A DNA stretch of 64,000 nt from an uncultured Pirellulaceae bacterium (GTDB taxonomy: Bacteria; Planctomycetota; Planctomycetia; Pirellulales; Pirellulaceae): the NCBI GenBank assembly GCA_938084685.1, contig CALKGE010000009.1, positions 1-64,000 on the forward strand, in the 5' to 3' direction. The notes below the pieces were generated by a model that saw only the letters and a list, made by a program, of their open reading frames with translations, had not been told where the DNA came from and ran no database searches. A program made the translations under genes and the position numbers. This document shows positions 12,541 to 35,777 of this stretch, piece by piece; position 1 is the first letter of the stretch, and the number at the start of each line of letters is the position of its first letter.

Positions 12541-13437
12541 ATGAGTATTCCCCCCATTGATCATGACCGTCGATCATTCGTTCGCGACGGTTCACTTTAC
12601 TTGCTGGGCGCCGGACTCGGTATGTCACACGTCTCCGAGTTGTTAGCTGACAAGTCTCAGCGCAGCGTGCGGCTAGGCTTGGTGACCGATATGCACTACG
12701 CTGACAAAGCTCCTGCCGGATCGAGGCACTACCGGGAGACGCTCGCCAAGCTGGAAGAGGCTGCCATCCGATTTCAGCAGGATCAGCCTGATCATGTCGT
12801 TGAGTTGGGTGATTTTATTGACGCCGCTGATTCGGTCGAGGTCGAGAAAAGATACCTCCAGCGAATCAATAAGGACTTTGCGGCGCTTCCCGGCCAGAAG
12901 CACTACGTTCTTGGCAATCATTGCGTTTACACTCTCACCAAGGAAGAGTTCCTCGAAGGCGTTGGTCAAAAAAAGTCTTACTACTCGTTTGATACTGGCG
13001 GGTTTCATTTTGTCGTCCTCGATGCCTGCTTCCGCAGCGACGGTAAGCCGTATGGCCGCAAGAATTTCCAGTGGACTGACCCGAACATCCCGGCGGATGA
13101 GGTGGAGTGGCTCAAAGCAGACCTGCAAGCAGCAAGTGGCAAAACCATCGTGTTCGTCCATCAGCGACTTGACGTGAGCAACCACTACGGTGTCAAGAAT
13201 GCGGCCGCAGTGCGCCAGGTGCTGGAAGAGTCAGGAAAGGTACTGGCTGTCTTTCAAGGACACAGCCATAAGAACGAACTGAAAGAGATCAATGGCATCC
13301 ATTACTGTGTCCATCGTGCAATGGTCGAAGGTTCAGGGGCGGAGCACAGCGGATACTCGACGATGGATCTGTTTGCCAACGAGACGATTCGAATCACGGG
13401 ATTTCGTGAGCAGAAGAATTACGAGTGGAAATCCTAG
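12541..13437 (+). CDS. exported calcineurin-like metallophosphoesterase
   Basis: A 298-residue protein with a Tat-like N-terminus (DRRSFVRDGSLYLLGAGLG, about 9-27). All binuclear-metal motifs are present: D50-x-H52 (TDMHY), GDFID (D91), GNHC (N126, H127), VHQRLD and GHSH near 240. The fold is that of the secreted alkaline-phosphatase D/purple-phosphatase-like group. Substrate could be a phosphomonoester or a nucleotide. The start has AGGAATCAGG a few bases upstream. It is followed by a convergent decayed redoxin gene. Confidence 0.88.
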   Translation: MSIPPIDHDRRSFVRDGSLYLLGAGLGMSHVSELLADKSQRSVRLGLVTDMHYADKAPAGSRHYRETLAKLEEAAIRFQQDQPDHVVELGDFIDAADSVEVEKRYLQRINKDFAALPGQKHYVLGNHCVYTLTKEEFLEGVGQKKSYYSFDTGGFHFVVLDACFRSDGKPYGRKNFQWTDPNIPADEVEWLKADLQAASGKTIVFVHQRLDVSNHYGVKNAAAVRQVLEESGKVLAVFQGHSHKNELKEINGIHYCVHRAMVEGSGAEHSGYSTMDLFANETIRITGFREQKNYEWKS

Positions 13438-13603
13438 CATGCCTTGCGGGAAACAGATCGAATGCGACGAGAAGCTGCCGCGGGAAAAACCTAAGAGAGG
13501 AAGGTCAGTATTTTTTTCGCTCAGAATTCTCGTGCGATTTTTTTGCACCACGCCGTCGGATTTTTCTGACCTCGCGGCTCAGTCTTCATTTCAACGAGGG
13601 CGC

Positions 13604-14332
13604 CTATTTATTCAACTTTTTTAGTTGTTCCAAAATCTCAGTTGGACTCGGGCGATCACTAAAACTGGCTGCCCGCTTTGCGTACCTTATAACTCCCGCT
13701 TTGTCGATCACAAACGTGGCAGGGCGATTACTCCATTCGGTGTGAATCCGCATCTGAAAAGCGACGCCATACATGGCGCTGACTGTCAAAGAGGGGTCCA
13801 TCAACAAAGGATATTTCAAGTCGTCCGTACTCAGACCGACGTCCTTCAACAGTGACTTGGCAGTCCAGGATTCATGGGGGTCGATTGCCAGCAACTCGAC
13901 ATTGTTATCATGAAATTCGGCAAGGCTGTTGCGCAACTGCGCAAGCTGAGAATGGCAAACAGGTCATGTATCTCCGTAGATGAATACTAGCACCACGGGC
14001 TTTTCGCCGCGAAAACTGGAAAGCCGAACCTTTTTATTGTTGGCCGAGATTAATTCAAAATCGGGCGCTAGTTTTCCAATCTGTGCCGAATCGATCGCCA
14101 GGGGATTCCAACCGGTCAAAGTTTGGCGAACCGCCGAATCGAGGGAGGCTTCCTTACGCAGTTTCATATAACTCAAATGCATCCTGATGTCGCGGTTTGG
14201 CTCATTTTTCATCAGTGCGTCAACATCCAGTTTCGCTCCTTGCCCCAACATCGCCAGTGAATCAATCAAGTACAATTTGACAGCAGCATTTTCCTCTCGC
14301 TCCAACGCTTCCTGCAATAAATCGACTGGCAC
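13604..14332 (-). pseudogene. HEAT-repeat/redoxin gene remnant with in-frame TGA at the active-site cysteine position
   Basis: One minus-strand reading frame runs from GTG 14332 to a stop at 13604, interrupted by a single TGA at 13966-13964. Upstream residues look like HEAT repeats (VDLLQEALEREENAAVKLYL), followed by an AhpC/TSA-type redoxin: GKLAPDFELISANNKKVRLS, VVLVFIYGDT, TGA, PVCHSQLAQLR, LLAIDPHESW and NRPATFVIDKAGVIRY. The TGA falls where redoxins have the first cysteine of C-x-x-C, so it reads as U-P-V-C. Two readings are possible: a selenocysteine redoxin (a hairpin follows, listed separately), or a Cys-to-stop mutation. Against function, a TAA at 14338-14336 interrupts the HEAT region and a transposase fragment replaces the 5' end, so at present the locus is probably decayed. 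Confidence 0.7.
13929..13944 (-). promoter_or_regulatory. candidate bSECIS hairpin downstream of the TGA
   Basis: In mRNA sense, TTGCGC-AGTT-GCGCAA forms a 6-bp stem with a 4-nt loop. The loop starts 25 nt after the TGA and has G at its second position. Bacterial SECIS elements are expected about 16-37 nt after UGA with a G in the first two loop positions, so the geometry fits. A short GC-rich hairpin can also arise by chance. Confidence 0.4.
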
Positions 14333-14404
14333 ATTTTAACCCAGATATCCAAGCGTCTGCGCAGAGAGGATTCGCCGATCCGTGTCGGTTGATTCCAATG
14401 CTTT

Positions 14405-14623
14405 TCGGCCCAGGAATTTCCCTTCACCACCGGCCGTTTACGCTGGACATCATTCATTAGGATTCGCTTCTTACCGAGTTTCGCCTTGAGCACTTGGTTT
14501 TCGGTACGGAGATAATTGATGGCTCGCTGCTGCTCCCGGTTCAAAGACAATTGCATCTCTCGGCCGAGATACAGCAACGCGAGTTGACGAAAACTTCCTT
14601 TGTATCCGAGTTTCTCCTTCGTG
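14405..14623 (-). pseudogene. transposase/integrase N-terminal fragment
   Basis: The minus strand encodes EKLGYKGSFRQLALLYLGRE, then LNREQQRAINYLRTENQVLK, KLGKKRILMNDVQRKRPVVKG and, after a one-frame shift near 14425, KFLGRKALE. This is the N-terminal HTH/leucine-rich region of the rve-type transposases common in planctomycetes (usual continuation: a DDE integrase core, absent here). The fragment runs straight into the HEAT-redoxin frame, so an insertion or recombination event has joined them. Boundaries are approximate; no terminal inverted repeats were seen. Confidence 0.6.
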
Positions 14624-14937
14624 TACTATTCTTGATCCTCGCCCTGCGGTCGCGAATTTTCGGGCGGATCCTCACGCGCAAACATGAGTGAGAGCGACTG
14701 CTCTAGTTGGGCAAAAGCGATCGGTGGAGCCATCGAAGAACCGATCACGATCGTCACGCTCGTGACGTTCTATCTTTCGACGAACTGCTTGGGATCGAAT
14801 TGAACGAAATTTGAGACTTGTCACCACCTTCTTGCGCCCTAAAGTGCCACTGAGTGACAAAAACGACACGGCCGTTCGTATTCTCTCGAAAGTTGGATCG
14901 AGACAAAAATAAACAGCGTTTATCAAGGAGAGTTGTA
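14624..14937. other. non-coding stretch upstream of the fasciclin gene
   Basis: No gene is visible. At 14751-14769 a stretch (ACGCTCGTGACGTTCTATC) is 18/19 identical to part of the tspO gene at 24699-24717 and would encode a similar TLVTFY segment, so a shred of a second tspO is possible. AAGGAGAG at 14925-14932 serves the next gene. Confidence 0.4.
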
Positions 14938-35321: not shown

Positions 35322-35418
35322 CCGCGCATCGCTTGCCGGCTCGTTCAGCAATCTACTCGAACGCTGTCAAAGAGACGGGCCTTGGTTGGATTGAGACAGG
35401 TAGTCCAACCTGGTCGAG

Positions 35419-35777
35419 TGGAGGCGGCGGGAATTGAACCCGCGTCCCGCAATATTTCCATGCAAGCTTCTACGCACATAGTTGAGCTTCTAAATTTAGC
35501 AAATCAGCACTCCACTCAACATGATTACTGATTCGCGATCTCGAAACTTGATTTAGATTACTGCGTGTCAAGCATGACAGTAATCGATCTGGATTTGCAA
35601 CGGGCAGTCAAAGCTCTCCAGCTAAACCTTTCAGCCCGGGTTGCCTTTACTTAGGCAGCCAATGCGAGATTATTCTCTGCAATTAAAGTTGTTCGGTCAG
35701 CTTTTTACGTGGCCAACTGACCAACCACGGTACGCCACTTACACTTCAGGCTATCCGGTCGATACCAATTCGCCCCC
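35419..35777 (-). ncRNA. ssrA: transfer-messenger RNA (tmRNA)
   Basis: The minus strand gives GGGGGCG at the 5' end (35777) and CGCCTCC-A at the 3' end (35419), which form the 7-bp acceptor stem with one G-U; CCA is not encoded. The T-arm CGGGTTCAATTCCCG is canonical. The tag frame, read from 35680, is GCA GAG AAT AAT CTC GCA TTG GCT GCC TAA, giving AENNLALAA, in line with planctomycete tags that end in ALAA. Size about 359 nt. tmRNA rescues stalled ribosomes and marks incomplete proteins for proteolysis. It overlaps nothing and lies just before uppP. Its 3' end is copied imperfectly near 25.0 kb. Confidence 0.95.

What the first reader, a model, noticed from the sequence alone, without database searches (positions are those of the whole stretch)
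13604..14332. Redoxin frame with TGA exactly at the catalytic cysteine and a SECIS-like hairpin
Seen: one continuous minus-strand frame with a single TGA (13966-13964) reading GDT-TGA-PVCHSQL, where redoxins carry C-P-x-C; a TTGCGC-AGTT-GCGCAA hairpin starts its loop 25 nt after the TGA with G in second position. Known: bacterial selenoproteins place U at the active-site cysteine and need a bSECIS in that distance. Against: TGC/TGT to TGA is a one-base change, a TAA cuts the HEAT part upstream, and a transposase fragment replaces the 5' end. So either a selenoprotein gene in decay or an ordinary pseudogene.
Basis: partly seen in the sequence, partly recalled or inferred. Interest (0 to 1): 0.72.

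Follow-up and report, generated by a model that had tools for sequence, protein, structure and literature searches.

The report
Beheaded selenocysteine redoxin gene
This bacterial gene carries a UGA codon and a hairpin that are conserved in its relatives and likely insert the rare amino acid selenocysteine into a predicted redox enzyme, but in this genome the gene has lost its front end next to a transposase-like fragment and may no longer work.

Summary
In detail: the frame, the single TGA (13966-13964), the hairpin with its loop 25 nt on, the upstream TAA and a transposase-like fragment are all there. Of 241 genomes of the same family, 13 hold a close homologue (the window's included) and all 13 carry TGA at that codon; so do 16 of 16 site-bearing loci from named genomes, 9 of them the same loci. 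The hairpin is nearly invariant and covaries; the window copy has a C-G to U-A swap. It belongs to a family of predicted UxxC selenocysteine redoxins with an N-terminal HEAT domain: a new variant of the known Prx-like UxxC selenoproteins. The window copy has lost about its first 100 residues and a TAA cuts the HEAT remnant, yet 239 codons tested show no neutral drift: a recent truncation, or a shorter live gene. Nothing here shows expression.

The parts
13604..14332 (-). retained open frame of the HEAT-redoxin gene, 242 codons with one in-frame TGA, then TAG
   Evidence: 46-58% identity to homologues in 12 other genomes
13964..13966 (-). TGA codon, predicted selenocysteine, first position of the UxxC motif
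   Evidence: TGA in 13 of 13 genomes and 16 of 16 site-bearing loci, 9 of them the same
13955..13957 (-). Cys126, second position of UxxC; aligns with the Cys of TxxC in peroxiredoxin-like proteins
   Evidence: alignment; invariant
13929..13944 (-). bSECIS-like hairpin TTGCGC-AGTT-GCGCAA
   Evidence: covariation; consensus fold; single-strand fold
13682..14080 (-). redoxin domain (AhpC-TSA, PF00578)
   Evidence: 96.9 bits, residues 85-217; predicted peroxiredoxin fold
14081..14390 (-). remnant of the HEAT-repeat domain, cut by the TAA
   Evidence: alignment with full-length homologues; HEAT_2 in full-length relatives
14336..14338 (-). in-frame TAA inside the HEAT remnant
14330..14332 (-). GTG, first possible start after the TAA (hypothetical)
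   Evidence: no start was tested
14393..14577 (-). frameshifted fragment of an IS3/IS481-like transposase (weak naming); junction with the HEAT part between about 14392 and 14375

Best explanation
The window holds a 5'-truncated copy of a bacterial redoxin gene whose in-frame UGA, conserved in its relatives together with a downstream hairpin, is predicted to be read as selenocysteine. In intact relatives the protein is likely exported (signal-peptide-like start, not scored here), has a HEAT-repeat domain and then a peroxiredoxin-fold domain with a UxxC motif, and would act as a thiol:disulfide oxidoreductase or a reductase of peroxides. Decoding would go by SelB bringing Sec-tRNA(Sec) to the UGA, positioned by the hairpin 25 nt downstream. 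In the window copy a rearrangement has put a transposase-like fragment against the middle of the HEAT domain, and a TAA now stops the original frame. The gene is therefore most likely a recent pseudogene. Shown: TGA and hairpin conservation, covariation, presence of selA, selB and tRNA-Sec, truncation, absence of measurable drift. Inferred: Sec insertion, export, redox activity, loss of function.
For: 13 of 13 genomes with E <= 6.4e-45 have one TGA in the match, at GDT-U-P[VI]CH (the query had Cys there, so Cys forms could match too). 16 of 16 loci L047-L062 that contain the site have TGA in the matched copy; 9 are the same loci as, and one of the two scan patterns asked for Cys. Codons CAG and TTG in the hairpin are identical in 13 of 13, while other invariant Leu columns use 3-6 codons. 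Hairpin on 22 loci chosen for having the TGA motif: 96.2% of 132 cells paired, both-side changes at two pairs, covariation score 0.144 against a shuffled mean of 0.078, reached by 0 of 500; slid versions reach at most 0.079. It meets the published bSECIS constraints (PMC13188914, passage seen): loop 4 nt, at least 4 bp, G in the first two loop bases, spacing 25, MFE -9.9 kcal/mol. selA 535.8 and selB 379.2 bits, over cut-offs; tRNA-Sec 65.6 bits, cut-off 47. SelA (E <= 1e-60) is found in 12 of 13 carriers against 110 of 228 other genomes, Fisher p = 0.0027, not corrected for kinship. The three genomes of the Cys-form loci L030-L032 are not among the 122 SelA hits.
Against: No selD over cut-off in the genome (best 19.4 bits against 125). 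The window 49-mer folds no better than shuffles (135 of 200). An alternative hairpin (columns 19-23 with 29-33) pairs 95.5% of cells, though without covariation. Two of the five covariation measures of the main hairpin are reached by 32 and 211 of 500 shuffles. Relatives L067 and L068, left out of that count, have the TGA but break four of its six pairs; L034, also left out, keeps all six. The site is not TGA everywhere: a tandem second copy in L060 has TAA, P0005 is listed with Trp and P0001-P0004 with Cys (DNA not seen). G195, a carrier at 63% completeness, has no SelA hit. Against 'pseudogene': best-fit neutral length 0, upper bound about 0.2 substitutions per codon over 239 codons, about 0.5 for the part before the TGA alone (other parameters held fixed, synonymous changes saturated). 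Other selenoprotein genes of this genome were not surveyed, apart from one formate dehydrogenase-like match under cut-off and without a stop.
Confidence: 0.8

Rival explanations
1. The truncated gene is still alive: translation would start at GTG 14332 or at an internal start and make a shorter, cytosolic UxxC redoxin with selenocysteine.
For: Redoxin domain intact; 4 of 69 otherwise invariant columns changed, within the range of 0-7 seen in 11 other homologues; no measurable neutral drift; hairpin kept by a compensatory swap.
Against: No sigma-70-like site was found on the minus strand of 13400-14900 (a weak test); only part of a HEAT domain would be left; a recent loss explains the lack of drift as well.
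Confidence: 0.18
2. An ordinary cysteine redoxin pseudogene in which TGC or TGT mutated to TGA by chance.
For: TAA and transposase-like fragment at the 5' end; the change needs one base.
Against: TGA at the same codon in 12 of 12 other close homologues of the family, and frozen codons plus a covarying hairpin downstream.
Confidence: 0.02
3. The TGA is a plain stop and the gene makes a HEAT protein and, separately, a redoxin C-terminal half.
For: The protein database lists pieces: P0009, P0013 and P0014 end at GDT, P0006 and P0007 begin at the second residue after the codon.
Against: The stop would cut one predicted fold between strand 113-117 and helix 124-135; Cys homologues run through the site as one chain (P0001-P0004; L030-L032).
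Confidence: 0.02

Closest known systems
Prx-like thiol:disulfide oxidoreductase selenoproteins (PF00578, UxxC; PMC1088965, PMC13188914)
   Same: AhpC-TSA/redoxin domain with Sec at the first position of UxxC instead of TxxU; bacterial SECIS right after UGA
   Different: N-terminal HEAT-repeat domain and likely signal peptide in relatives; all 17 records have planctomycete-type titles; the window copy is truncated
Redoxin family selenoprotein (PF08534, UxxC) in the table of PMC13188914
   Same: domain and motif
   Different: I saw only the table row, no sequence; I could not tell whether it includes the HEAT form
SelL-related redox protein (NF040769)
   Same: best NCBIfam match of the window protein (52.2 bits)
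   Different: far below its cut-off of 120 bits, so not a member by that model
AhpE-type peroxiredoxin (1xvw) and ResA (4nmu)
   Same: sequence profile match and predicted fold (1xvw, 4nmu)
   Different: AhpE has TxxC and ResA CxxC (both recalled), here UxxC; no HEAT domain in either (recalled)

Membership tests
bacterial selenoprotein | in-frame UGA at a position where relatives have UGA or Cys | tested here: met
   13 of 13 genomes UGA; Cys in L030-L032 and in P0001-P0004 as listed (DNA not seen); exceptions: TAA in a second L060 copy, Trp in P0005 as listed
bacterial selenoprotein | bSECIS: spacing 16-37 nt, loop 3-9 nt with G in the first two bases, stem 4-16 bp, MFE <= -7.5 | tested here: met
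   25 nt, AGUU, 6-bp inverted repeat (5 stacked at the loop in the MFE fold), -9.9 kcal/mol (constraints from PMC13188914); bSECISearch itself was not run
bacterial selenoprotein | selA, selB and selC in the genome | tested here: met
bacterial selenoprotein | selD in the genome | tested here: inconclusive
   not found in an 89.75%-complete assembly; the queC-like neighbour of selD in relatives not found either (no positive control)
bacterial selenoprotein | selenium in the protein | not testable with these tools
   needs 75Se labelling or mass spectrometry
Prx-like UxxC thiol:disulfide oxidoreductase selenoproteins | AhpC-TSA domain with UxxC | tested here: met
   PF00578 96.9 bits; TGA-PVC
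Sec peroxiredoxin (TxxU) | Sec at the Cys position of TxxC | tested here: not met
   U aligns with the Thr, Cys126 with the Cys
SelL-related redox protein NF040769 | score over 120 bits | tested here: not met
   52.2 bits

The most novel reading that the evidence does not exclude
Planctomycetes own a distinct family of exported HEAT-repeat selenoproteins with a UxxC redoxin, absent from current selenoprotein lists. The window caught one copy in the act of being cut free of its HEAT domain and signal peptide by a transposon fragment, leaving a still-selected cytosolic selenoprotein.
Probability: 0.15. Interest if true: 0.65.

Novelty: new variant of a known kind. Interest (0 to 1): 0.5.

Why it matters
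Selenoprotein genes are often cut at UGA by standard annotation (PMC13188914, passage), and several database entries of this family end or begin at the codon. A conserved HEAT-redoxin selenoprotein adds a domain architecture that I did not find in print, with an unusually conserved bSECIS that covaries. The window copy, plus a frameshifted copy (G149), an internal relic (G066) and a tandem copy with TAA at the Sec codon (L060), make it a possible case for studying how selenoprotein genes are lost.

Tried and rejected
Alternative hairpin (columns 19-23 with 29-33): well paired but no covariation. Branch-specific dN/dS: own branch 0.026 against 0.035, but the own branch length ran to its bound, so I used a profile of added neutral time instead, re-fitting only the tested branch. 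Conserved neighbours in 16 loci with up to 4 kb on each side: apart from the gene itself, only genes shared by groups of two or three loci. Another DNA copy of the transposase-like stretch in the genome: none. Lost N-terminus elsewhere in the window: no credible match; the rest of the genome was not searched for it. A second copy of the TGA-plus-hairpin motif in the genome: none with up to 3 mismatches. TGA counts in lower-ranked redoxin hits are not all Sec candidates: in L040 and L041 the TGA is at the end of the match, as a normal stop. Rows dropped from the 13-genome count: G194 (contig-end fragment), G066 (51-56 residue relic), G201 (29% identity, own TGA) and G055's second, 29% copy. In the tree (support values not printed) P0001-P0004, Cys as listed, fall inside the TGA clade, which would mean repeated Sec/Cys exchange, but I did not see their DNA; L066 was cut there and its placement means nothing.

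Full report
The observation. The minus frame 14332-13604 is open for 242 codons except for one TGA at 13966-13964 and ends in TAG. It encodes a remnant of HEAT repeats and an AhpC-TSA/redoxin domain (96.9 bits). The hairpin TTGCGC-AGTT-GCGCAA lies at 13944-13929, 25 nt between TGA and loop. Upstream, a TAA stands at 14338-14336, and the frame continues as HEAT sequence to about 14375-14392, where it meets a frameshifted transposase-like fragment. That fragment's longest relative (P0122) resembles IS3 and IS481 transposases only weakly: 18.2 and 16.2 bits, under cut-off.

The genome. It is a 3.43 Mb, 14-contig assembly, 89.75% complete. That it is a planctomycete is inferred: its genus-mate G233 has the homologue on a contig of 16,798 bases, the length of JABJJO010000052.1, titled a Planctomycetaceae bacterium. 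It has selA (535.8 bits) directly after selB (379.2 bits), both over NCBIfam cut-offs, and a tRNA-Sec gene (65.6 bits, cut-off 47) on the same contig. No selD passes the cut-off; 17 of 20 genomes given to one search have one, including 6 of the other 8 members of the genus. In five relatives (L095, L096, L097, L099, L100) selD sits next to a gene that reads as queC (named from recall; in the sixth, L098, the contig ends there). That protein finds nothing in the window's genome, in a search without a positive control. An assembly gap is the simplest reading, not a proven one.

The family. Among 241 genomes of the family, 13 hold a homologue at E <= 6.4e-45, the window's included, and each match has one TGA, at GDT-U-P[VI]CH. 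The search query carried Cys there, so Cys forms were not excluded. A scan of GTDB contigs with two peptide patterns gave 17 loci; 16 contain the site and all 16 have TGA in the matched copy; 9 of the 16 are the same as. One of these loci, L060, has a tandem second copy with TAA at the site. In 392 genomes of the phylum 9 match at 1e-20: the window, L065, L066, L067 and L068 have TGA at the site, L071 a UMTC motif, L069 Cys, L070 and L072 neither. Cys forms with the same layout, L030-L032 at about 30% identity, occur in three genomes absent from the SelA list. In the protein database P0001-P0004 are listed with Cys and P0005 with Trp; their DNA was not seen.

The hairpin. On 22 loci that all have the TGA motif, 96.2% of cells pair, and two pairs change on both sides: C-G to U-A in the window copy, L059 and L060, and G-C to U-G in L055. 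0 of 500 shuffles reach the covariation score; 32 and 211 of 500 reach two other measures. Left out of that count were L034, which keeps all six pairs, and L067 and L068, which break four of six. A rival hairpin has no covariation. In the coding sense the stretch is frozen: CAG and TTG identical in 13 of 13, while other invariant Leu columns use 3 to 6 codons. It fits the published bSECIS constraints (PMC13188914, passages seen). By energy alone the window's 49-mer is unremarkable.

Chemistry and fold. U123 stands between strand 113-117 and helix 124-135 in a confident model (pLDDT 87.3), which matches peroxiredoxins. U aligns with the Thr of TxxC and Cys126 with its Cys. This is the UxxC arrangement described for Prx-like selenoproteins (PMC1088965, passage seen). 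Relatives P0002, P0003 and P0014 carry HEAT_2 before the redoxin, and the N-termini of full-length relatives look like signal peptides; that was not scored.

State of the window copy. Compared with L018 and P0002 it lacks about the first 100 residues and has the TAA. Yet its retained part breaks only 4 of 69 columns invariant in the other 11 homologues compared (range 0-7), and a likelihood profile over 239 codons prefers no neutral time, with an upper limit near 0.2 substitutions per codon, or near 0.5 for the part before the TGA alone. So the truncation is recent, or the short gene is still used. I favour the first because the original start and export signal are gone and no minus-strand promoter-like site was found (a weak test), but cannot decide.

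Co-occurrence. SelA is found in 12 of the 13 carriers and 110 of the other 228 genomes, p = 0.0027 without correction for kinship. The exception, G195, is 63% complete.

Literature. I saw passages of PMC1794560, PMC4807772, PMC13188914, PMC9312934, PMC2398784, PMC12013277 and PMC1088965, not whole texts. No paper listed by my searches joined HEAT repeats with a Sec redoxin (listings only, most subscription journals are not held).

Noticed in passing
L060 1184-2221: A tandem second copy of the gene has TAA, not TGA, exactly at the Sec codon (1865-1867), in an otherwise open frame, with a hairpin whose loop reads GGTC. The record title gives coverage 3.9, so error, fresh inactivation or UAA decoding are all open.
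   Followed up: partly
G228 and G230 (genus of the window): selD with an in-frame TGA but no selA match at E <= 1e-60.
   Followed up: no
L036 1492-1659: Isolated 51-56 residue relic of the same family in genome G066, which has selA.
   Followed up: partly
L029 around 2004: The G149 copy of the gene is frameshifted near residue 170 of the query.
   Followed up: partly
L034: More distant HEAT-redoxin with TGA (DGUGGC) and a GCGCAGTTGCGC hairpin at the same spacing.
   Followed up: partly
P0005: Database homologue listed with Trp at the Sec position.
   Followed up: no
window 35416-35777: tmRNA gene on the minus strand (159.5 bits).
   Followed up: no
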